Part shown: positions 34,338 to 64,000 of the stretch, in pieces | How the letters are laid out: every line of letters starts with the position of its first letter | How positions within the stretch are numbered: the first letter of the stretch is position 1 | Assembly (NCBI RefSeq): GCF_004765815.2 | Contig: NZ_ML974127.1 | Span: forward strand, 846,927-910,926 | DNA: 64,000 nt | Origin: Halorussus salinus | GTDB lineage: Archaea; Halobacteriota; Halobacteria; Halobacteriales; Haladaptataceae | Reading direction: 5' to 3' | The notes under the pieces: generated by a model | The model's database searches: none | Told to the model about the DNA's origin: nothing | What the model saw: the letters and a program-made list of their open reading frames with translations, nothing else | Program-made: the position numbers and the translations under genes

Positions 34338-34439
34338 TGGCCAGTCTGTCCGCGCGCACTTGGCGAGGTCGCCGCGAGAACCACCGCGTCGATGTCCGGT
34401 CTCGGAAGGATTATTCCCGAGGCGGCCGTCCTGCCGATT

Positions 34440-35216
34440 ATGTCCGACTGGGAGACCATCAGCCTCGACTACGACGAGAACGTGGCGACCCTGACCGTGG
34501 ACCGACCCGACCGACTCAACGCGCTGAACGTCGATACCCTCGAAGCTATCGAGGAGGCCCTCGCCGAGGCCGAGTCGGAGGGCGTCGGCGCGCTCGTCCT
34601 CACGGGCGCGGGCGACGACGCCTTCGTCGCTGGCGCGGACATCGGCTACATGCAGGACCTCTCGACGCCCGAGGCCCAAGCCTACGCCGAGTTGGGCCAC
34701 CGCGTCGCCGACAAAATCGAGCAGTTCCCTGCCCCCGTCATCGCAGCAATCAACGGCTACGCGTTCGGCGGGGGCTGTGAACTCGCGTTGGCCTGCGACC
34801 TCCGCGTCGCGGCCGAGAGCGCCCTCCTCGGCCAGACCGAAATCGACCTTGGCATCATCCCCGGGTGGGGTGGAACCCAACGGCTCCCTCGTCTCGTCGG
34901 CGACGAGATGGCTCGCCGTCTCATCTTCTTCGGCGAGCGCATCGACGCCCAAGACGCCCACGAACACGGTCTGGTCGGCGACCTCGTGGCCAGCGACGAA
35001 CTCGATTCTCACGTTCACGAACTCGCGGCCGACCTCGCGGCCAAGCCGACCTACGCGCTCACCGCCGCGAAGGAGGCGCTGAATCAGTCCCACGAGACCG
35101 ACCAAGCCGCGGGCCTGCGCTACGAGCGCCGCCTCTGGAGCGGCCTGTTCGGCACCCACGACCAGCGCGAGGGGATGGAGGCGTTCTTGGAGGACCGGGA
35201 ACCGGACTTCGAGTAG
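34440..35216 (+). CDS. Enoyl-CoA hydratase/isomerase family protein
   Basis: A 258-residue crotonase-fold enzyme starting MSDWETISLDYDENVATLTVDRPDRLNALN at 34440. The oxyanion-hole segments are AFVAGADIGYMQDL and INGYAFGGGCELALACDLRVA; the two acidic catalytic residues lie in the second and in LGIIPGWGGTQRLPRLVG. It hydrates enoyl-CoA in fatty acid or amino-acid catabolism. No other beta-oxidation genes are nearby. Confidence 0.92.
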   Translation: MSDWETISLDYDENVATLTVDRPDRLNALNVDTLEAIEEALAEAESEGVGALVLTGAGDDAFVAGADIGYMQDLSTPEAQAYAELGHRVADKIEQFPAPVIAAINGYAFGGGCELALACDLRVAAESALLGQTEIDLGIIPGWGGTQRLPRLVGDEMARRLIFFGERIDAQDAHEHGLVGDLVASDELDSHVHELAADLAAKPTYALTAAKEALNQSHETDQAAGLRYERRLWSGLFGTHDQREGMEAFLEDREPDFE

Positions 35217-35271
35217 CTTACTACCAGCGAACTCGAAATGAATTTATGTGGAAACGGATTATTTCATTCTA

Positions 35272-36831
35272 ATGTCTGATAACGGAGGTATGTGTGGGTT
35301 TGAGCCAGATTTAAGTCAATTGTCTCACCCACCGGGAGATTACTGCTGTTGCAGACCAGTCCCAGACGGATTTAGCCGATGTGTTTGGCACGAAAACAAA
35401 GAAAATAAAGATGCTAGTAAACTCCAGAAATATCGAGCAGATGGTCCCGAAGTATTGGATGAAATTATACTCCGAGGAGCAACCATCGGCAAAGGACTGG
35501 AGTTCGAAGGTTGTCGAATTTATGCTTCCGATTTAACGGGAGCAAGTCTAAAAGGTACAAATCTCCGAGATTCTGATTTAAGATATTCTAATCTCTCAAA
35601 CGCAAATCTACGAAATGCGGACGTATCTGAGTCCAACTTACAGGAAGTGAACTTGTCAGACACATCTCTTGGGGGAACAGATTTCGAAGGTTCTCATATG
35701 TCCGCAACGGATCTTACTGGTTCGACTGCTTTAAAAACTGATTTTTCTAACACCCACTTCGCAGGTGCGGTGTTGGATAAAGTCGAATACCGAGTTACGG
35801 ATTTTACTAACTCTCACATGACAGGCGTAAGTTTTGAAGATGCAGAGTTCCATAAACCGATATTTTCCGAAGCAAAACTTCAAAGCACCAATCTGTCCGA
35901 CGTTCGATTAGGAGCCTCCAATTTCACAAATGCTAGTTTAAAAGATGCAAACCTATCAGGTTGCTTCCTGAAGAGTACAACGATGAACGGTACTACACTT
36001 ACTGGAGCAAATTTGTCGGATGCTAACTGTGAAGAGGGCAATTTCAAAAATGCCGAGCTTCAGAACTCAAGGCTGGAAGAAACAAATCTCTCTGAAGCAA
36101 ATCTTAACGGTGCAAACCTTGAAGGAGCTTTTTTACTTCGAACAGATTTACGAGGTGCAGAGCTTACTAATACGAAAATATTCGAATCTGTTTTCGAGAA
36201 TATAATCACTGATAGCAAAACTAAGTTTGGTGAGTATGTACCGTATGAAGAAGAAGGTGAATATAATAAAGCTGTCCGAGTCTATAGAAGATTATCCGAC
36301 TTAAAGAAAGAAAATGGAGACGTGAAAAACTCCCAACGGTACTATATCCGTCATAAAGAGTCCCGGCGAAAGTTGGCGAAAAAGAAATTCGCTGAAACCT
36401 CATTTCTCAAATCAGTATCACAGGATTGGGGAATACATTGGACCAAATTGCTTTTATCTTCTATTCAAAAAATCGGGTCTCGATGGGTTATGAAGCACGG
36501 GGAAAGTCCGTGGAGAGTTATCGGGACTTCACTCACAATCATCGTTCTTTGTAGCTTTATATACCCATTTATTGGCGGAATACGTCCTGCGATTTCTTCT
36601 GCTGATCCACATTATCTGCCAATAGACATACCGTTTGTAGACATTCCGGAAGGTCTACAAAACGCATCGGTATATGCCTATTTCAGCTTAGTCACCTTTA
36701 CGACTCTCGGATACGGCGATTTGCAACCTGCTGGCTTTGTAAGCCGGACACTCGCAGGTCTTGAGGCGTTCGTCGGTGGTCTCCTGATGGCACTTCTAGT
36801 GTTCGTTTTGGGCCGTAGGACAACTTGGTAA
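35272..36831 (+). CDS. Pentapeptide-repeat protein fused to a two-helix K+ channel pore
   Basis: A 519-residue protein. Residues 8-40 form a Cys/His cluster (C8, CCC25-27, RCVWH at 36-40) that may bind zinc. Residues 66-312 are about 45 A(N/D)Lxx-type pentapeptide repeats, giving a right-handed beta-helix. Residues 325-375 are a charged helical linker. Helix 418-436, a pore loop with TTLGYGD (477-483, the K+ selectivity filter) and helix 489-512 make a two-transmembrane channel subunit. Base composition is strikingly AT-rich compared with all neighbours, and codons such as AAA, TTA and ATA are common, so recent transfer is likely. It is bordered by ordinary genes with no visible transposase or tRNA. 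Confidence 0.85.
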   Translation: MSDNGGMCGFEPDLSQLSHPPGDYCCCRPVPDGFSRCVWHENKENKDASKLQKYRADGPEVLDEIILRGATIGKGLEFEGCRIYASDLTGASLKGTNLRDSDLRYSNLSNANLRNADVSESNLQEVNLSDTSLGGTDFEGSHMSATDLTGSTALKTDFSNTHFAGAVLDKVEYRVTDFTNSHMTGVSFEDAEFHKPIFSEAKLQSTNLSDVRLGASNFTNASLKDANLSGCFLKSTTMNGTTLTGANLSDANCEEGNFKNAELQNSRLEETNLSEANLNGANLEGAFLLRTDLRGAELTNTKIFESVFENIITDSKTKFGEYVPYEEEGEYNKAVRVYRRLSDLKKENGDVKNSQRYYIRHKESRRKLAKKKFAETSFLKSVSQDWGIHWTKLLLSSIQKIGSRWVMKHGESPWRVIGTSLTIIVLCSFIYPFIGGIRPAISSADPHYLPIDIPFVDIPEGLQNASVYAYFSLVTFTTLGYGDLQPAGFVSRTLAGLEAFVGGLLMALLVFVLGRRTTW

Positions 36832-36864
36832 CGACCATCTTGTAAAAAATGGCATTCGAGCCAC

Positions 36865-38172
36865 TTAATCCTGAGCCGCCGGAGTAATAATTCCTTCCGC
36901 GTCGGAAACCGTCTCCTCGACCTGCGTGTAGACCAGCACTAGCCCCAGCGCCGCCAACACGCCGCCGAACGCGAAGGGCCAGACGAACCCGAAGGTCACG
37001 AGGAATCCGGAGGCCAGCGGCCCGATGGCGGTCCCGAGACCGAACGCCATCGTCAGAATCGAGAGCTTCGTCCCCGACTCGCCCTCCTTGGCCAAGTCGC
37101 CCGCCAGCGCGAGCGAGGGCGCGAACACCATCGCCACCGCGACGCCCTGCACGAACCGCGCGGCGACCATCCCGGCGGGCGTCGTCACGAACCCCTGCGC
37201 GGCCAGCGAAGGCACCAGCACGACGAACCCCGCGACGAGGAAGGGCCGTCGCCCGTAGGTGTCGCTGGCCCGCCCGATGGGCACCTGAAAGACGACGTTG
37301 GCGATGACGACCGCGGCGAACTCCAGTCCGAAGAGGACCGACCCCTGTCGCAGTCGCTCGGAGAGTTGCGGTTCCAAGGTCGCGAAGAGACCGATGCCGA
37401 TGGCCATGAACAGCGTGGCGAGGCCGAGCGTGAACACGGGGTCCAAACCGCCCGCGTCCGAGTCGCTGACCGACACCGCGAGGTCGTCGCCAGCGCGGGC
37501 CTTCGTGGCCTCGGGGTCCGAGACGAACAGCGCGACCAGCGCGAAACTCGTCGCCGCGCCGAGGAGGGCCACCCCGAACGCCGCGGTGAACCCCGAGATA
37601 GTTCCCGCGGGCGTCGCGTACGGACCCAACTCTATCAGGAACCCGGCGACCAGCGGACCGAACCCGAACCCTATCAGCCGGAAGGTGTTGAACACGCCGA
37701 AGTTGCCGCCGCGGGTCGCGTCGGTCGCCAACTCGTTGACCAGCGCGACGGTCGCCGGGATGGCCAGCGCCGCGCCGACCCCCTGCAACATCCGGAGCGC
37801 CAGCACCGCGGCGTAGCTCTCGGCGAAGACGTAGGCACCGCTGGCGACGCCGAGGAGGGCGAGTCCCGCGAGGATGAACGCCTTGCGCTTGCCGGTCCGG
37901 TCGGAGAGTCGCCCGGTGAACGGTTGGCCGAAGCTGTTGAGGAAGCCGAACAGCGAGAGCGCGACGCCGATGAGGACCGACTGGGCGACCGCGACGCCCA
38001 GAATCTCGGTGCCGCCCGCCGCACCCGCCGCGCCTGCCCCGCCAGCGGCGTCGAGGACGACATCGTCCAGAAACTGCGGGAGGACGACGATGAGAAAGGA
38101 GTTGCCCACCGCGTCTATCATCCGAGCGAACGCGAGGGTCAACACTCGCCGGTCGGTGCCGAGCAGTGCCAT
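36865..38172 (-). CDS. MFS transporter
   Basis: A 435-residue membrane protein with 12 predicted helices. GQPFTGRLSDRTGKRKAFILAGL is the major-facilitator loop 2-3 signature, with a related PIGRASDTYGRRPFLVAG in the second half. An acidic loop (DPEATKARAGDDLAVSVSDSDAG) separates the halves. The substrate is probably a drug or metabolite and the mode efflux, judging by similarity to multidrug MFS proteins. It converges with the pentapeptide-channel gene. Confidence 0.88.
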   Translation of the reverse strand: MALLGTDRRVLTLAFARMIDAVGNSFLIVVLPQFLDDVVLDAAGGAGAAGAAGGTEILGVAVAQSVLIGVALSLFGFLNSFGQPFTGRLSDRTGKRKAFILAGLALLGVASGAYVFAESYAAVLALRMLQGVGAALAIPATVALVNELATDATRGGNFGVFNTFRLIGFGFGPLVAGFLIELGPYATPAGTISGFTAAFGVALLGAATSFALVALFVSDPEATKARAGDDLAVSVSDSDAGGLDPVFTLGLATLFMAIGIGLFATLEPQLSERLRQGSVLFGLEFAAVVIANVVFQVPIGRASDTYGRRPFLVAGFVVLVPSLAAQGFVTTPAGMVAARFVQGVAVAMVFAPSLALAGDLAKEGESGTKLSILTMAFGLGTAIGPLASGFLVTFGFVWPFAFGGVLAALGLVLVYTQVEETVSDAEGIITPAAQD

Positions 38173-54049: not shown

Positions 54050-57000
54050 TCAGACGAAACTCCCGAGTCCGGTCTGCTCTTGCCCGGATTTCACCTCGTC
54101 CCACGAGATGTCGAGGGCTTCGAGAATGCGCTCGATGGGTCCCTGCAACGTCTTGTCGAGCATCTTGTCCCAATCGACTTCGAACTCGTCGGGCACTTGG
54201 TCGGCGAACTCGAAGCAGATAACGTCCGGGTCCTTCTTGAACTCCCGGTAGCGGCGGTCCTCCTTCGAGTTTCCGCTCGGGTCGAAGCCCTCCTCGTTCT
54301 CCATCCGTTGCCAGAAGTCCGGGTGGACGCCCTCCAAGTAGAGTCGCTTGGGCTTGCTCCCGCGCTGAAAGTTGGTCCCGAGCATGAGGTTGGCGTACTT
54401 CGCGCCCCGGACCTGCGCGGTGTCGGTGTCGTAGGCGTCGAGTCGCTTGCCGATACCGCCGGGGATGCCCACGTCGTCCAGATTCACGTTCCCGGCTTGA
54501 TAGTCCTCGATGACCTCGTGGACGTAGTCTTTCACGTCCGATAGCTCCTCGCCGTGGACGATCATGTCGATGACGTTCTTCTGGACCTCCTTCGTGATGG
54601 GTGCGATGTCCGACCGCTTGTACTCGAAGCCCGTGATGTCGATGTCGTCTACGTCCTTGCCCTCCTTCCAGACGATGTGACCCGCGTAGCGTTTCTTCTT
54701 GCCCGCTTGGAAGAATCGTCGGTAAAGTTTCTCGAACTCGATCTGGAAGCGGTGGGCCGCCGCGTTGAGTCGTTCGAGGGCGAACTCGTCGTACGACTCG
54801 TTGATGGCCTCTTCGACTTCGTACCCCTTCTGAATCGTCGCCGCGAGCGATTCGAGTTCCTTCTCGTCCATCTCGGGATGTGCTTCCCGCATTCCGTCGG
54901 TAACTTCGACATCGCCCTCCACGTCTTCCGCACCTATATGACCGACTTCTAACATTACTGAGTCGGTATCTCCGTAGGCAACGTCGTAATCCAGTTCTTC
55001 TGCCGTCTCTTGGGTGTGTTCGATGACCTCTCGACCGGTCGCAGTAATCGCGGCCCCCATCGCCTTGTCGTAGAGGCGGAATCGCTCCCAACCGAGGACG
55101 CCGTAGAGCGACTGGCCGACGAACTGGAACGTTCCGTTTCGGCCCGCGAGGAGCGTGTGGTTGTCCTCGACGGTCACGCAGTAGACGCCGTCGTCGGCGG
55201 TACTCCGGGACGAACTGCGGTGCATTCGGAGCGTGTTCTTGCTCTCCTCGGTGCAGTAGATGCGCCACGCGCCACTGTCCTCGCGGTAGTTCGTCGTCAG
55301 TCCGAGGTGGGCACAGAGACGAAGCACGTCGTCGCGGAGTCGCTCGCTCGCCGTGGAGTATCGCCACGAGTTCTTCTGTCTGTCTCCGTCCCCATCGACC
55401 AGCGTTTCGAGGAAGCCGCACTTCTGGTCCCGACTCGCCTCGAAGACGAACTCCGGAATCCGCTTCTCGAAACTGTCGTCGCCACAGAGACGTTCGAGGA
55501 GTCCGCCGAGGAGTTTCGAGGTGAACTGGTACCCTCGGTCGTCAACGTAGTAGTCGAACCCCATCCTGTCGAGGAGGTCGCCGATGGCGGCGTGGTCGCT
55601 CTCGCCGCCGTCGGTCATGACGGCGTCTTGGGCGATCTGGATGCTCGTCGCGGACCCGCGGAAGTTCTCGCCGAACTGCTTCTCCTCCGAGGTGTAGACG
55701 TTTCCTTCCGTGACGTACCACGCGAGGAGTTCGAGGAAGTCGTCGCCGTCGTACGTCCGAGGAATCCACTTGCGGCCGGACTCGGCGTGGACGTAGAACT
55801 CCGAACAGACCGACTCCAGATACTCGCGGTGTGCCTCGAACTCGTTGGCCGAGAAGACGTACCCTTCTTCACCGATATCGGCCTTCTGCACTTTGTCGGG
55901 GTACCAACCGATTTCGGCGGCGAGAGTGTGACCGTGAACGTCGTGGTTCGCCCAGATTTCGTAGTCGTCGGCGAACTCGGTCAGGTCGATTTCTTCGAGG
56001 GGCGTCCCGTCCGGCCCGTCCCAGTCGTGGGGAAGTTCGTAGTTCGTCGCGGGGTCTAAGTCTCCGGCCTCCACGAAACTGTACTCGTCTTGGGTGACGC
56101 CGTTCGTCTCGTTCTTCCGAACGAGCATGCGGTGGTTCGGCGTTACCCGGAAGTCCATCTTGCTGGTCTCGATGTCAACGAGGTCGCCGCGGTAGTCGGG
56201 ATACGCGTGGGTCTCCACGACCGGTTTGCGTTCCATCTCCTCGGTGTCGGGGTCGAGCGAGTACACCTCGTCGCCGACTTCGAGGTCCCGAATGTTCCGA
56301 ACTCCCTCCGGCGTGAGAACGTCGGTGTCCGGCGTGAAGCAGTTCATGATGACCTTCACCGCGGCCTGCTGGCGGTCGAACCGCTCGTACTCCGAGGTTC
56401 CGGGGTCGCGCTCGTTGCGGAGCGCCTTCTTCTCCTCGCGCTCGGCGAGCGTCTCGTCGATGATTTCGCGGATGATGCCGTCCGGTTCCTTCTGGAAGTG
56501 AGTGCCCGTGGGCGCGGTGTAGGTCTCGCCGTCGTACTCGTCGGGGTCCACCTTCGTCTCGGGCGAGGCGTTGATAGTCGTCATCGACATCGGGTAGAGG
56601 CTGGCCAAGTCCAGCACGGTCACGTTCTCCTTGACGCCGGTAATCGGCTCGAACACCGCGCCGCCCTCGTAGTCCTCGCTCTCCTGTTTGCCTTTCGAGG
56701 GGAGCGCGAACTCCCCGTGGGCCTTGTGGAGGACGTACATGTCCACCGCGTCGCCGGGCGTCGTGGCGTCTTCGAGCTTACACCCGACGAAAGAGGCGAC
56801 CTCCTCCCAGAAGGAGACGATGTCCTGCTTGCGGTCGAGTTGGACACACAACTCCACGTCCCTGACGTTGTACTCCAGCAGGCGCTCGGGGTCGTTCTCC
56901 CAGAGGTCGCCGATGTCGCCCGCGTAACGCTCCTTGCCGACGCCCAACTCGACTTCGCCCACCGCGTCGAGGCGGTAGGATTCCAGTTCCGAGAACTGGG

Positions 57001-58093
57001 TGCGCTTGTAGCCGTACAGCAGGTCGAAGACGACGCGGCCCTTGACCGTCGGTCCGCCCCAGTCCGAGTCCCAGACCTCGTTCACGCGCGAGAGGCGGTC
57101 CGAGTCGAGGTCGTACTCGTGCGGCCCGTCGAGTTCGTCCAGTCGGTCGATGAGGTAGGGCGCGTCGAAGTCGTCCGCGTTCCACCCAGTTAGGATATCT
57201 ACGTCTTTTCGGTTGATGTAATCGAGGTACTCCTCCAGCATCTCGCGCTCGTCGCCGAACGTGCGGACTTCGAGGTCTATCTCCTCGATGGGGTCGTAGC
57301 CCGGCAGGTCGTCGGGGGCCTCGGCGTCGCCGTCGGGCGCGTCCGCGAGCCACGCGATATACTGGTCGTCGTAGGAGTCGAACGTCGTGAGACAGATGAT
57401 GGGTTCCTCGCCCTCCTCGGGGAAGCCCGACCGGTCGTCCACCTCGATGTCGAAGTAGTGGACGCGCGGGTCGGCCTCGACCTCGACGGGTTCGAGGGTG
57501 TCGAGTCCGTCGTGGAAGTAGAGGTCGCCCTCGTCGTCGCGGCGCTCGGGGATGCGAATCCCGCTCTTGACGTTCTTGTCGATGAGGAATCGGTTCGGGA
57601 AGAGGATGTCGGCCTCGTAGTGGTCGAAGTTCTCCCGGACGTTCCCCACGTCCCGAGGAGTCCGGCCGAATATCTTGGTCAGCTTCTCGCCCCGGATGCT
57701 CTCGTACGGCTCACCGTCCTCGTCGGTCGTCTCGCTCCCGGTGAGGCTGTCGTAGCTCTCCTCGGGCGGGCCGTCGAGTGAGGCGGTCGGCGCGTAGAAG
57801 TAGGGACGGAAGCCGACCACCCGGACGTGTTCGAGGGTGTTGTCCTCCGTGCGCCCGAAGACGTGGACCACCGGTGCTTCGTCGTCGCCCGACCCCTCGA
57901 CGGTGTAATCGACCTGCATCACCGCGAGTTCGACCTCGCCGTCGGCGTCCGGAAGCCAGTCGTCGTCCTCGACCACCGAGTCGGCCCCCCGAGAGTCGCT
58001 TCCGGCGACTGCTCGGGCTTCGGCGGCCACGTCTCGGTCGTCGCCGCCACCGTCGGAGAAGTCCGTGAGTGTCGTAGACCCCGAATCGCTCAT
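54050..58093 (-). CDS. polB: Family B DNA polymerase with one intein
   Basis: A 1347-residue precursor (937 residues after splicing). Exonuclease motifs: VHYFDIEVDD (Asp215/Glu217), NADDFDAPYL (305-314) and YNVRDVELC (408-416). Polymerase motifs: VLDLASLYPMSM (region II, 493-504), KVIMN joined to SLYG after splicing (region III), YGDTDS (1040-1045, region I). The C-terminus QTGLGSFV has Q-x-x-L-x-x-F, a PCNA-binding motif. The first 50 residues are a disordered acidic extension. It is a replicative or repair polymerase of the archaeal B type. Confidence 0.95.
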   Translation of the reverse strand: MSDSGSTTLTDFSDGGGDDRDVAAEARAVAGSDSRGADSVVEDDDWLPDADGEVELAVMQVDYTVEGSGDDEAPVVHVFGRTEDNTLEHVRVVGFRPYFYAPTASLDGPPEESYDSLTGSETTDEDGEPYESIRGEKLTKIFGRTPRDVGNVRENFDHYEADILFPNRFLIDKNVKSGIRIPERRDDEGDLYFHDGLDTLEPVEVEADPRVHYFDIEVDDRSGFPEEGEEPIICLTTFDSYDDQYIAWLADAPDGDAEAPDDLPGYDPIEEIDLEVRTFGDEREMLEEYLDYINRKDVDILTGWNADDFDAPYLIDRLDELDGPHEYDLDSDRLSRVNEVWDSDWGGPTVKGRVVFDLLYGYKRTQFSELESYRLDAVGEVELGVGKERYAGDIGDLWENDPERLLEYNVRDVELCVQLDRKQDIVSFWEEVASFVGCKLEDATTPGDAVDMYVLHKAHGEFALPSKGKQESEDYEGGAVFEPITGVKENVTVLDLASLYPMSMTTINASPETKVDPDEYDGETYTAPTGTHFQKEPDGIIREIIDETLAEREEKKALRNERDPGTSEYERFDRQQAAVKVIMNCFTPDTDVLTPEGVRNIRDLEVGDEVYSLDPDTEEMERKPVVETHAYPDYRGDLVDIETSKMDFRVTPNHRMLVRKNETNGVTQDEYSFVEAGDLDPATNYELPHDWDGPDGTPLEEIDLTEFADDYEIWANHDVHGHTLAAEIGWYPDKVQKADIGEEGYVFSANEFEAHREYLESVCSEFYVHAESGRKWIPRTYDGDDFLELLAWYVTEGNVYTSEEKQFGENFRGSATSIQIAQDAVMTDGGESDHAAIGDLLDRMGFDYYVDDRGYQFTSKLLGGLLERLCGDDSFEKRIPEFVFEASRDQKCGFLETLVDGDGDRQKNSWRYSTASERLRDDVLRLCAHLGLTTNYREDSGAWRIYCTEESKNTLRMHRSSSRSTADDGVYCVTVEDNHTLLAGRNGTFQFVGQSLYGVLGWERFRLYDKAMGAAITATGREVIEHTQETAEELDYDVAYGDTDSVMLEVGHIGAEDVEGDVEVTDGMREAHPEMDEKELESLAATIQKGYEVEEAINESYDEFALERLNAAAHRFQIEFEKLYRRFFQAGKKKRYAGHIVWKEGKDVDDIDITGFEYKRSDIAPITKEVQKNVIDMIVHGEELSDVKDYVHEVIEDYQAGNVNLDDVGIPGGIGKRLDAYDTDTAQVRGAKYANLMLGTNFQRGSKPKRLYLEGVHPDFWQRMENEEGFDPSGNSKEDRRYREFKKDPDVICFEFADQVPDEFEVDWDKMLDKTLQGPIERILEALDISWDEVKSGQEQTGLGSFV
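55112..56341 (-). other. Intein in polB (residues 585-994) with LAGLIDADG endonuclease
   Basis: The intein starts at Cys585 (CFTPDTDVLTPEGVRNI, block A); block B is DFRVTPNHRMLV; two dodecapeptide motifs LLAWYVTEGNVY (about 789-800) and LETLVDGDGDR (about 895-905) mark a homing endonuclease; block F is VTVEDNHTLLAGRNGTFQFVGQ, ending Gly993-Gln994 before Ser995 of SLYG. The ending Gly-Gln replaces the usual His-Asn. The insertion site is the catalytic region III of the polymerase, a common intein site in archaeal PolB. Confidence 0.9.
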
Positions 58094-60134: not shown

Positions 60135-62801
60135 TCAGTCCGCCGCTTCCAGCACGGTCTCGCGGCGCTCGACCGTCGAGCGGTTCGACACGGAGTCCTT
60201 CTCGACCCACACCACGTCGTCGGCCGCCGCGACGAGTTCGTCGTCGTGGCTCACGACGACTATCTGCTCGACGCCCAACTCCCGCATCGACGCGACCAGT
60301 TCCGCGAGTTGCGAGACGTGCCCCGAGTCGAGGAAGACGGTCGGTTCGTCCAAAATCAGGGGCGGCATCGGCGCGGTCCCCTCGATGCCCTCCGAGAGGA
60401 GTCGGTAGATTGCACACCGCAGGCTCAGGTTGAACAGCGCGCGCTCGCCGCCCGAGAGCTGTTCGGGGTCCAGCGACTCGCCGTCCTTCTGGTAGACGGT
60501 CAACTCGTACTCGCCGTCGAGTTCGATGCGGGCGTACGAGTCGTTCTGGTACACGAGGTCGAACACGTCGTTGAGCATCTCCTCTAACTGCTCGACGTTG
60601 CGCTGGCGGAGTTCCGCGCGCAGGTCGCCGTACATCTCCTGTAGCTCGGCGGCCTCCTCGCGCAGGGATTCGAGCGACTCGACGCGCTCTTGGAGGTCGT
60701 CGCGCCGGTCGCGCAGATTTTCGAGGTCTTCGATTTTCGTCTTCGTACTGTCGATTTGTCCGATGAGCGTGTCCCGCTTCTCACGAAGCTCCCGCAACTT
60801 CACCTCGACCTTCTCCAAGTAGTCCTCGGCCTCCTTCTTGTCCTCGCGGGCGCTCTGGACCTTCTGGTCGTCGTAACTCTCCCGGAGGTCGCTCCGACGC
60901 TCGCGCTTGTCGGCCAGCCTGTCCCGGCGCAGGTCGTTCTGTTCTTCGAGGTTTCGGCGCTTCTCGCGGTGGCGCTCGATGTCGTCCTCGGCGTCCGCGA
61001 TTCGCTCGCGGACCGAGCGAATCTCGTCCAGTCGCTCGCGCTTTGTCTCGATTGCCTCGCGCTCGGCTTCCAACTCCTCGACGCGCGCCTCGCGGTCGTC
61101 GGCCTTCTCCCGGAGGTTCGCGGCGTCCTCGCGCTTGTCGTCGGCGTCGGCTTCGAGGTCGTCGGCCGCCTCGCGCAACTCGGCGGCCTCCTCGCGCTTC
61201 TCGGCGACCGACGCCTCCTTGTTCTCGACCAACTGCTCGACGTTCCGGCGGTTCTCGCGGGTGTTCTCGACAGTCTGCTCGGCTTCGCGGAGTCGCTTCG
61301 CTTCTTCGACGCTCTCCTCGGCCTGTCCGCGCCGGTCCCGGACCTCGGCGAGTTCGGCGTCGAGGTCGTCGGCGCGCTCGCGGTCCTCCGCGAGCGTATC
61401 GACGTGCGGTGAGTCTTCGACGGGTTGGCCACACTCGGGACACTTGCCCGCTTCGAGGAGTTCTTCGGCTTCCTCGACACTGTCCCGGAGGCTGGTGAGT
61501 TCGGCGGTCAGTTCCTGCTCGCGCTCCCGGAGGTCGGATAGCTCCTCGCGGCACTCGTCGAGGTACGACTCGGCCTCGCCGAACTCGACGGGGGCGTCCG
61601 AGAAGGCGTCCTTCTCGGCTTCGACCTGCTCGCCGAGCGTCGCTAACTTCTCGCGGTACGATTCGAGGTCGGTATCGGCCTCGTCGGCTTCGGTTTCGAG
61701 TTCGTCGGCGCGCTCGCGCTTCTGGTCGGCGCGCGACTGTAGCTCCTCGGCCTTCTCGGCGAGGTTCCCGGCCTGCGTGTCGAACATCTTGGCCTGCGTG
61801 TTCGCGTCGCCGAGCTTCTCGGCGAGTTCCTCGTCCTCGGCGTCGAGTTCGTCCAGACGGGCCTCGACGGCCTCGTCGTCCGCGGTATCGAGGTCGGTGT
61901 CGGAACGTAAGTCTTCGACCTTCGATTCGAGGTCGTCGATTCGCTCGCGGAGTTCCCGGACGCGCTCGCCGTGTTCGGTCCGCTCTCGCTCGGTCTGGCT
62001 GATTTCGGACTCCAACTCGTCGATGTCTTCGGCGAGGGCGTCGAGTTCCTCGCGCTTCTCCTCGTAGCTGTCGAGAATCTCGACCGCCTGTTCGCGGGTC
62101 TCCTCGGCGGTCTCCTCGTTCTCCTCGAAGCGGTCGATTTCGCTCTCGGTCTCGTTCAGCGCGGACTTGCGGTCGTTCAGGCGCGAGTGGAGGTCCTTGG
62201 CTTCCTTCTGTTCGATTTGGCTCTCCAACTCCGAGAGACTGCCGCGCTTGTCGTCCAGTACCGATTTGACACCGAGGCGGGCGTCGCTGGCGCGCTCGCG
62301 GTACTCCTCCAGTTTCCCGAGTTGGAGGAGGTCGTCTATCATGTCCTGCCGTTGGCTCGGCGAGGCGTTGATGAGCTTGTTCACCTCGCCCTGCCGGACG
62401 TACGCGCAGTTGACGAACGCCTCCGAGTCCATCCGGAAGAGGGTCGTCACCTCTCGGCGCACGTCGCGCGCACCCTCTATCGTGTCGTCGGGCGTTTCGA
62501 GGACGCACTCGGCGGTCGTCGCGCGCTCGCCGGTCGCCCGGATGCGCCGCCGGACGTGGTAGTCGCCGCCGTCGTGGGTGAACCAGAGTTCGATTATCGC
62601 TTCCTCCTCGCCGATAGTCACCACGTCTTCGAGCGTGCGGTCCAGCGCCTTCGCGCCGTAGAGCGCGAAGAAGCAGGCTTCCAGCAGGGAGGACTTGCCG
62701 CTCCCGTTCAGGCCGTGAATGACCGTGACGCCGGGGTCGAGTTCGAGGTCGGCGTCGGCGTAGCACTTGAAGTTCCGGAGGCGCACGCGGTCGAACTTCA
62801 T
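60135..62801 (-). CDS. rad50: DNA double-strand break repair ATPase Rad50
   Basis: An 888-residue SMC-like ATPase. MKFDRVRLRNFKCYADADLELDPGVTVIHGLNGSGKSSLLEA has the Walker A. Two long heptad coiled coils flank the zinc hook KCPECGQP (Cys454 and Cys457). C-terminal LSGGERALFNLSLRCAIYRLL is the ABC signature and MPPLILDEPTVFLDSGHV the Walker B. It tethers DNA ends and controls Mre11. Its ATG overlaps the mre11 stop. Confidence 0.97.
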   Translation of the reverse strand: MKFDRVRLRNFKCYADADLELDPGVTVIHGLNGSGKSSLLEACFFALYGAKALDRTLEDVVTIGEEEAIIELWFTHDGGDYHVRRRIRATGERATTAECVLETPDDTIEGARDVRREVTTLFRMDSEAFVNCAYVRQGEVNKLINASPSQRQDMIDDLLQLGKLEEYRERASDARLGVKSVLDDKRGSLSELESQIEQKEAKDLHSRLNDRKSALNETESEIDRFEENEETAEETREQAVEILDSYEEKREELDALAEDIDELESEISQTERERTEHGERVRELRERIDDLESKVEDLRSDTDLDTADDEAVEARLDELDAEDEELAEKLGDANTQAKMFDTQAGNLAEKAEELQSRADQKRERADELETEADEADTDLESYREKLATLGEQVEAEKDAFSDAPVEFGEAESYLDECREELSDLREREQELTAELTSLRDSVEEAEELLEAGKCPECGQPVEDSPHVDTLAEDRERADDLDAELAEVRDRRGQAEESVEEAKRLREAEQTVENTRENRRNVEQLVENKEASVAEKREEAAELREAADDLEADADDKREDAANLREKADDREARVEELEAEREAIETKRERLDEIRSVRERIADAEDDIERHREKRRNLEEQNDLRRDRLADKRERRSDLRESYDDQKVQSAREDKKEAEDYLEKVEVKLRELREKRDTLIGQIDSTKTKIEDLENLRDRRDDLQERVESLESLREEAAELQEMYGDLRAELRQRNVEQLEEMLNDVFDLVYQNDSYARIELDGEYELTVYQKDGESLDPEQLSGGERALFNLSLRCAIYRLLSEGIEGTAPMPPLILDEPTVFLDSGHVSQLAELVASMRELGVEQIVVVSHDDELVAAADDVVWVEKDSVSNRSTVERRETVLEAAD

Positions 62802-64000
62802 AGGTACTCCTCCAGCGTCCCGTCGGCGTCAGTCGTCTCCGACGACGAATCCGCCTCCGCCGCGCTCTCGCCCTCTGTCGCGGCCTCGGCGACCGCTTCC
62901 ATCGCTTCGGGGTCGTCGGGGTCGGGCGCTCGCTCCGCGGCTTCGTCGCTCCCGTCGGACTCGGACTCCGTGGTCGCCGACTCCGTGGACTCCGCGTCGT
63001 CTGCGTCCGTGTCCGCGTCTGCTTCCGCGGGCGCGGACTCGAAGGCGTCGAGGTCGCCGTCGGCGACGAGTTCGCTCACCCGGTTCTGGACCGACTCGCG
63101 GACGTTCGCGTCGGCGACCTTGCTCTCGCGGACGGTCTCGTCGATGCCGCGGGCGGCGTCGCTCAGGCCCAACTCGCGGACGCGCTCGCGCACCGCGTCG
63201 TCGGGGTCGGCGAACGACACGTCCAACTCGCCGTCGTCCTCCTCGACCTCGCGGCGGTCCTTGACGCGGACGACCAGCGCCCCGGCGTCGAGTCCGAACT
63301 CCTCGACGCGGGCGGGCGTGACCTCCTCGCCGTCGCCCTCTATTTCGACCACGACCACGGCGTCTTCGAGGTCGCGCTCGCGCAGTTTCTCTCGGACGCG
63401 CTCGGTGCCCTCGCCCTCCGCGAGGTCGGCCTCTACGAACTCGAAGTCCCGCGTCGCGTCGAGGCCCCGGCGAGCGATGGTCGTCTCGCCGTCGAACTCT
63501 ACGATGTTGTAGCCCCGGTCCTCGCGCTCGTCGGTGCTACAGCGTTCGGTCGAACCGCAGTAGGTGACCCACGTCTCGGCGACCTCCTTCTTGCCGGGCT
63601 TGTGGTTGTCGCCCAACAGCATCGCGTCGAAGTCGAGGTTGGCCTCGGTCAGGACCTCCTCGGCGTCCCAGTCGCCGAGGTCGAACGGTTGGAAGAGGCC
63701 GTGGCTCACCAGCGCGGCGTGAGGTCGGTCGTGTGGCGCGAACTGGTAATCGAGGTCGTCGCGCTTGGACTTGGGCACGTGGTCGAGACCGTAGAACGCC
63801 GTGTCGCCGACGATTTGGGGTTCGTCGCCGAGTCGCGTGGCCAGCCCCAGCATCTCGAAGAGGTCGAGCCACTGGCGGCCCCGCGTCCCCTCGTGGTTGC
63901 CGACGACGGCGAGAAACGGGATGTCGGCGTCCCGGAGTCGCCGGAGAACGGAGATGGTCCCGTGGAGGGCGTTCAAGTCGGGCCGACGGTCGTGGAACAG
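62798..64000 (-). CDS. mre11: Double-strand break repair nuclease Mre11 (5' end missing)
   Basis: The frame enters from the right edge (LFHDRRPDLNALHGTISVLRRLRDADIPFLAVVGNHEGTRG) and ends at 62798. The metallophosphoesterase motifs visible are HDRRP, GNHE and LLGDNHKPGKK. The C-terminal 200 residues are an acidic region with an S/E/D-rich tail, ending TLEEYL. It cleaves DNA at breaks with Rad50. The stop codon overlaps the rad50 start (ATGA). Roughly the first 30-60 residues lie outside the window. Confidence 0.93.
   Translation of the reverse strand: MFHDRRPDLNALHGTISVLRRLRDADIPFLAVVGNHEGTRGRQWLDLFEMLGLATRLGDEPQIVGDTAFYGLDHVPKSKRDDLDYQFAPHDRPHAALVSHGLFQPFDLGDWDAEEVLTEANLDFDAMLLGDNHKPGKKEVAETWVTYCGSTERCSTDEREDRGYNIVEFDGETTIARRGLDATRDFEFVEADLAEGEGTERVREKLRERDLEDAVVVVEIEGDGEEVTPARVEEFGLDAGALVVRVKDRREVEEDDGELDVSFADPDDAVRERVRELGLSDAARGIDETVRESKVADANVRESVQNRVSELVADGDLDAFESAPAEADADTDADDAESTESATTESESDGSDEAAERAPDPDDPEAMEAVAEAATEGESAAEADSSSETTDADGTLEEYL

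What the first reader, a model, noticed from the sequence alone, without database searches (positions are those of the whole stretch)
35272..36831. AT-rich island encoding a Zn-finger / pentapeptide beta-helix / K+ channel fusion
A single gene with very different base composition joins a Cys/His head, about 250 residues of pentapeptide repeats and a two-helix pore with TTLGYGD filter. The beta-helix could be a sensor or a DNA-mimic domain gating membrane potassium flux, an architecture suitable for stress or phage-abortive responses. Flanks are tight (55 and 33 bp) and show no transposase, so the route of entry is unclear.
Basis: partly seen in the sequence, partly recalled or inferred. Interest (0 to 1): 0.62.

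Follow-up and report, generated by a model that had tools for sequence, protein, structure and literature searches.

The report
Acquired haloarchaeal pentapeptide-repeat potassium-channel protein
A salt-loving archaeon (Halorussus) has picked up one foreign, AT-rich gene for a membrane ion channel with a zinc-finger-like head and a pentapeptide beta-helix, a distant relative of the anti-phage channel HalA, and it may act as a stand-alone antiviral membrane effector, though its function is untested.

Summary
ORF 35272-36831 (519 aa) has a Cys/His head, about 245 residues of pentapeptide repeats, a helical linker and a two-helix K+-channel pore (TTLGYGD). GC is 0.42 (third positions 0.36) against flanks of 0.68. 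Its 1,648-bp segment is missing in close relatives: in two Halorussus species the flanking stop codons abut directly, and in two more they lie 1-2 bp apart. So it is an insertion, not an old resident.

The architecture is not unique. It is a broad, apparently uncharacterised family in haloarchaea, Gammaproteobacteria and a few other bacteria. Halorussus keeps a separate syntenic, native-GC resident copy. The window gene falls in an accessory, often plasmid-borne set.

Folding models place the family closest to HalA, the DNA-gated channel of Hailong anti-phage defence, across both domains. Three distant members lie directly downstream of DISARM drmABC; accessory members sit among defence genes more often than resident ones. 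The window gene fails Hailong membership: HalA score far below cut-off, no HalB in the genome. Its own neighbours are metabolic.

Best reading: a horizontally acquired, stand-alone, HalA-like ion-channel effector, probably antiviral (inferred, about 50%). Main rival: an accessory K+/stress channel.

The parts
35217..36864 (.). inserted AT-rich segment (1,648 bp) lying exactly between the stop codon of the enoyl-CoA hydratase gene and the (reverse-strand) stop codon of the MFS gene
   Evidence: in G012 and G003 the two stop codons abut with 0 bp between them; in G011 and G010 2 and 1 bp
35272..36831 (+). gene for the 519-aa Cys/His-head - pentapeptide beta-helix - channel protein
35272..35451 (+). 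head, residues 1-60: C8, C26, C37, W39, H40 (putative Zn site), then a short helix 48-54
   Evidence: invariant or nearly invariant columns in 45 homologues; same head in bacterial members
35452..36207 (+). pentapeptide-repeat right-handed beta-helix, about residues 61-312
   Evidence: Pfam PF00805/PF13599/PF13576; AF2 model
36208..36498 (+). basic helical juxtamembrane linker, residues 313-409 (YRRLSDLKKENG...YYIRHKESRRK; net charge +11)
   Evidence: helices 331-347, 351-379, 387-407 in the model; conserved Y325, Y338, R366; charge
36499..36828 (+). pore domain, residues 410-519: TM1 413-434, pore helix 458-477, filter TTLGYGD 477-483, TM2 489-518
   Evidence: PF07885, DSSP of the model
34392..35216 (+). 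left flank: enoyl-CoA hydratase, resident
   Evidence: PF00378 E 5.4e-66; in all 18 genus genomes searched
36865..38172 (-). right flank: MFS transporter, resident
   Evidence: PF07690 E 1.3e-55; adjacent to the hydratase in relatives

Best explanation
The gene is a single-gene, horizontally acquired cargo in a Halorussus chromosome. It encodes a gated cation (K+-type) channel that works like HalA. A cytosolic pentapeptide beta-helix capped by a Cys/His (probably Zn) head sits on a basic helical linker that leads into a two-helix pore. There is no C-terminal regulatory domain, so the N-terminal part must gate the pore (inferred). The most likely role is a standby antiviral effector: the head and beta-helix hold the pore shut until they sense an infection cue (a nucleic acid or a viral protein), then the pore opens, collapses the K+/membrane gradient and arrests the infected cell. 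Shown here: architecture, fold relation to HalA, insertion into an empty site, accessory and plasmid distribution of its relatives, and DISARM linkage of distant members. Inferred: Zn binding, tetramer, gating direction, antiviral role, the cue.
For: Fold: HalA (9NYI) is the only one of the 50 PDB matches listed for the window model that covers both beta-helix and channel (E 1e-5, 386 columns), and it is rank 1 for the 350-aa resident member (E 2.4e-9, 325 columns against 333 residues). The HalA profile hits at 43.6 bits over the repeats and, in distant relatives, over repeats plus channel (L178 89-333, L196 370-665). Insertion: 0-2 bp between the flanking genes in four relatives; GC3 0.36. 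Accessory set: the tree puts the gene outside the 31-row resident clade, and the resident copy has its own conserved synteny. Accessory members lie on many plasmids. drmA-drmB-drmC-channel order recurs in L196, L241 and L245. Neighbours of 30 accessory loci match DpdA/B, DrmB/C, ThsB, REase, MTases, BrxD and PDC candidates; neighbours of 20 resident loci match few. The selectivity filter is lost in 13 of 38 accessory but 0 of 31 resident copies.
Against: The window gene itself has no defence neighbours. Defence enrichment is confounded because plasmid and island regions are rich in defence genes anyway, and per-protein counts were not available. The DISARM-linked branch is distant (24-27% identity in the pore region), has a different N-terminus and a TGLGYG filter without Asp. 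The window gene keeps a full K+ filter, as a housekeeping channel would. Superposition with HalA is loose (TM 0.25-0.38). No experiment.
Confidence: 0.5

Rival explanations
1. An accessory K+ channel for osmotic or ionic stress: the head and beta-helix sense cytosolic conditions (ions, metal, redox) and modulate K+ flux; it is a mobile paralogue of the resident copy.
For: Complete TTLGYGD filter. All 31 resident-clade copies keep the filter, have native GC and conserved synteny in Halorussus, which suggests a housekeeping role for the family core. Haloarchaea depend on molar cytosolic K+ (established knowledge). One plasmid member neighbours an NAD-binding protein annotated for K+ transport (L191).
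Against: A third of accessory copies have lost the K+ filter. They are patchy and foreign in composition, and some follow drmABC. No K+-transport operon around the window gene.
Confidence: 0.3
2. A neutral or selfish passenger, for example a remnant of an integrated plasmid or virus segment, with no present benefit.
For: A single gene at an intergenic spot where other relatives carry an unrelated ~1-kb high-GC gene (G007, G014, G017); AT-rich composition typical of recent arrivals.
Against: Intact 519-codon frame with all conserved motifs; no mobile genes, attachment site or significant repeats.
Confidence: 0.12
3. A true Hailong system with HalB encoded elsewhere in the genome.
For: Fold resemblance to HalA.
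Against: HalA model 43.6 bits against a cut-off of 250; best HalB match in the whole genome 22.3 bits over 26 residues against a cut-off of 190.
Confidence: 0.03

Closest known systems
HalA, effector channel of the Hailong anti-phage system (PDB 9NYI; NCBIfam NF051894)
   Same: Pentapeptide-type N-terminal part on a two-helix channel at the C-terminus; best solved-structure match over both domains
   Different: Far below the HalA family cut-off; no HalB partner in the genome; longer beta-helix (about 250 residues); sequence identity only 12-15% in the structural alignment. Whether HalA has a Cys/His head could not be checked
Uncharacterised haloarchaeal/gammaproteobacterial pentapeptide-repeat channel family (PF00805 + PF07885; e.g. 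Colwellia L125, Vibrio L140, Aeromonas L126)
   Same: Cys/His head C-x-Y...C...C-x-W-H, pentapeptides, helical linker with conserved A-x-x-x-Y/R, TLGYGD pore, conserved C-terminus
   Different: Bacterial and resident haloarchaeal members are short (about 330-400 aa) and match host GC; the window protein is longer, AT-rich and inserted
DISARM-linked channel gene after drmC (L196, L241, L245)
   Same: Pentapeptide helix plus related pore (24-27% identity)
   Different: N-terminus without the Cys/His head, filter TGLGYG without Asp, encoded in an operon with drmABC
Qnr / MfpA DNA-mimic pentapeptide proteins
   Same: Right-handed pentapeptide beta-helix
   Different: No channel in those; no strong negative charge here

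Membership tests
Two-helix K+ channel (Ion_trans_2, PF07885) | Two membrane helices with pore helix and T-x-G-Y-G-D filter | tested here: met
   PF07885 E 5.2e-10 over the 22.5-bit cut-off; TTLGYGD; helices 413-434, 458-477, 489-518
Two-helix K+ channel (Ion_trans_2, PF07885) | K+ conductance as a tetramer | not testable with these tools
   monomer model only
Pentapeptide-repeat proteins | Tandem A(D/N)LXX repeats forming a beta-helix | tested here: met
   PF00805 E 2.7e-43; model and Foldseek to HetL and others
Hailong anti-phage system | HalA score over the family cut-off (250 bits) | tested here: not met
   43.6 bits; no genome of 394 haloarchaea has one over the cut-off, though nothing rang in the controls either
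Hailong anti-phage system | HalB nucleotidyltransferase partner | tested here: not met
   best 22.3 bits over 26 residues against cut-off 190 in the whole genome; flanking genes are ECH and MFS
Hailong anti-phage system | Pentapeptide-type crown plus channel fold of HalA | tested here: inconclusive
   Foldseek E 1e-5 (window) and 2.4e-9 (resident member) over both domains, prob 1.00, but TM 0.25-0.38
DISARM | drmA, drmB, drmC beside the gene | tested here: not met
   none in the window; no DrmA of that type in the own genome at E 1e-100; met only for L196, L241, L245
Head - pentapeptide - channel family (unnamed) | C-x-Y/F ... C ... C-x-W-H head plus repeats plus conserved linker and pore | tested here: met
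Qnr/MfpA-type DNA mimic | Strongly negative DNA-like surface, gyrase binding | tested here: not met
   net -16 over 252 residues, not unusual for a haloarchaeon; binding not tested
Zn finger | Bound Zn at four Cys/His ligands | not testable with these tools
   ligands conserved; metal not shown

The most novel reading that the evidence does not exclude
The family is a large, one-gene class of anti-viral (or abortive) channels, found in archaea and bacteria, in which an exchangeable head plus a pentapeptide beta-helix senses infection directly, without a signal-making partner such as HalB. Hailong HalA and the DISARM-linked channel would be branches that were recruited into multi-gene systems.
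Probability: 0.2. Interest if true: 0.8.

Novelty: new variant of a known kind. Interest (0 to 1): 0.5.

Why it matters
If the reading is right, the HalA type of channel is not peculiar to Hailong. It would belong to a broad family with a resident branch and a mobile branch, and one sub-branch would be a fourth gene of some haloarchaeal DISARM operons. That would give a concrete, testable candidate for membrane-directed antiviral defence in archaea, where few effectors are known, and a natural comparison (resident against mobile copies) for how a housekeeping-like channel is recruited into immunity. Even under the rival reading it identifies a conserved, apparently unstudied channel family in archaea and bacteria.

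Tried and rejected
1. First genome-contig scan with the single protein found no relative; the conserved-pore alignment A2 worked. 2. Target-site duplication or repeats: TTCGAGTAGCTTA/TTCGAGCCACTTA flanks the insert (10 of 13), but 6.3% of shuffles reach that, so not significant; mechanism of entry stays open. 3. Defence genes near the window gene: none adjacent. The 64-kb scan hits only models consistent with a Rad50-like ATPase (DndD, PbeC, LmuB, PtuA types) and an intein homing endonuclease; the scan does not name the member hit, so this attribution is inferred from Pfam. 4. Hailong membership: rejected. 5. DNA-mimic beta-helix: no support from charge. 6. 7. Viral-contig search gave only distant hits of 26-53% identity. 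8. The primary Hailong paper (PMC12360457) is not held in the library; what is said of it comes from citing papers. 9. Paper searches found no study of this pentapeptide-channel family; the library is partial. 10. The PADLOC alignment scans give families, not which neighbour was hit, so no formal enrichment test was possible.

Full report
OBSERVATION. The ORF from ATG 35272 to the stop at 36829-36831 codes for 519 residues. Pfam reports three pentapeptide models and Ion_trans_2 at residues 464-516. GC of the gene is 0.42 against 0.68 on each side, and the third codon position is 0.36 against 0.65-0.94 in the other window genes. The AlphaFold2 model from 45 homologues has mean pLDDT 88 and pTM 0.77. 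It shows a beta-helix to about residue 312, helices 331-347, 351-379 and 387-407, then TM1 413-434, a pore helix 458-477, the TTLGYGD filter and TM2 489-518.

HEAD. In 45 haloarchaeal homologues C26, C37 and H40 are invariant, and C8 and W39 are at least 90% conserved. The same C-x-Y...C...C-x-W-H head opens most of the inspected members from Colwellia, Vibrio, Aeromonas and Anammoxibacter; a few (L172, L162) lack the cysteines. A Zn site is the natural inference, but metal was not shown.

ENTRY. Left of the gene is an enoyl-CoA hydratase, right is an MFS gene on the other strand. In G012 and G003 the two stop codons abut with no base between them, in G011 there are 2 bp and in G010 1 bp (the MFS gene there has an internal deletion). 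The window has 1,648 bp there. G007, G014 and G017 have an unrelated high-GC open frame of about 1 kb at this spot, so the site accepts different cargo. No transposase or significant flanking repeat was found.

FAMILY. Sixteen of 18 genus genomes have homologues, at only 36-44% identity for the better ones. At E 1e-30, 45 of 394 haloarchaeal genomes have one. A tree of 76 pore regions separates a 31-row clade (support 100/95) of short, native-GC copies from the rest. The window protein lies outside that clade on a long branch, weakly (80/90) with a Haloprofundus plasmid copy and a Halogranum copy. The resident copy in this same genome (L002/L227) shares extended synteny with seven other Halorussus genomes. 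So the genus has a vertical resident gene and, separately, mobile relatives. Accessory copies are frequent on plasmids. The canonical filter is kept in 31 of 31 resident copies but in 25 of 38 accessory copies; the accessory sample was chosen partly for length and low GC, so its medians are not unbiased, but the filter was not a criterion.

LINK TO HALA. Foldseek against the PDB gives many pure pentapeptide proteins and one structure spanning both domains, HalA bound to oligodeoxyadenylate (9NYI chain A; E 1e-5, prob 1.00, 386 columns). For the 350-aa resident member HalA is the best match of all (E 2.4e-9, 325 columns). TM-scores are low (0.25-0.38), so domain orientation differs or is badly predicted. 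Citing papers describe HalA as an ion channel blocked by poly-dA adducts of HalB (PMC13275509), with phage exonuclease activity lifting the block (PMC12657230). The window protein scores 43.6 bits with the HalA model (cut-off 250), and the genome has no HalB (22.3 bits over 26 residues, cut-off 190). It works like HalA in anatomy, but it is not Hailong.

LINK TO DEFENCE. On a Haladaptatus plasmid a distant member overlaps the end of drmC in a drmA-drmB-drmC-channel operon. The same gene order recurs in G172 (L241) and G118 (L245); 14 other related DISARM loci have no such gene in the fetched stretch, and one locus (L242) was cut short by a contig end. These three have a different N-terminus and a TGLGYG filter. 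Other accessory copies lie near ThsB (L189), a type IIG enzyme (L189), methylase and Mrr-like genes (L194). PADLOC scans of neighbours of 30 accessory loci hit many defence families; those of 20 resident loci hit few, mostly TnpB-like nucleases. This contrast is qualitative: the scan does not name the protein hit, and plasmid regions are rich in defence genes in general. The window gene itself stands alone between metabolic genes.

MECHANISM. There is no domain after TM2, so gating must come from the N-terminal side. The linker is basic (+11 over 97 residues) in an acidic proteome, while the beta-helix is only mildly acidic (-16 over 252). The best-supported picture is a HalA-like channel whose head and beta-helix keep the pore shut and release it on a cue. 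Antiviral use is inferred from fold, distribution and distant operon linkage. A K+/stress channel remains a serious alternative because this copy keeps an intact K+ filter.

VERDICT. Real, correctly described, horizontally inserted; a new variant in a broad, apparently unstudied channel family related to HalA. Function untested.

Noticed in passing
window 54053-58093 (-): Family B DNA polymerase (1,347 aa) that carries an intein: Hint and LAGLIDADG domains inside the polymerase.
   Followed up: partly
window 60138-62801 and 62801-63853 (-): Rad50-like SMC ATPase (888 aa) with an overlapping 351-aa partner without Pfam match; probably the source of the generic DndD/PbeC/LmuB hits in PADLOC.
   Followed up: no
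L196:1000-9494, L241:3108-11634, L245:3572-12094: Haloarchaeal DISARM operons with a pentapeptide-channel gene as fourth gene after drmC; possibly an undescribed DISARM accessory protein.
   Followed up: partly
L067:2199-3183, L068:2435-3435, L070:3057-4515: Three relatives carry a ~1-1.5 kb high-GC insert with a predicted membrane protein at the same ECH-MFS spot where the window has the channel gene: a small hot spot of replacement.
   Followed up: no
L071: In G010 the MFS gene next to the empty site is internally deleted: only its first and last parts match.
   Followed up: no
L018/L030, L019, L087, L095, L188, L190, L193, L194, L215: Accessory family members whose K+ selectivity filter is replaced by unrelated residues while the rest of the pore domain is kept.
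   Followed up: partly
L198:4992-6123: In Halalkalicoccus jeotgali plasmid 3 the family gene is annotated as three successive pieces (two pentapeptide ORFs and a potassium channel ORF), so probably decayed.
   Followed up: no
L179, L180, L181: Contigs in the viral collection IMG/VR with a 446-aa pentapeptide-channel-like ORF (about 27-34% identity in the pore), GC 0.34.
   Followed up: no
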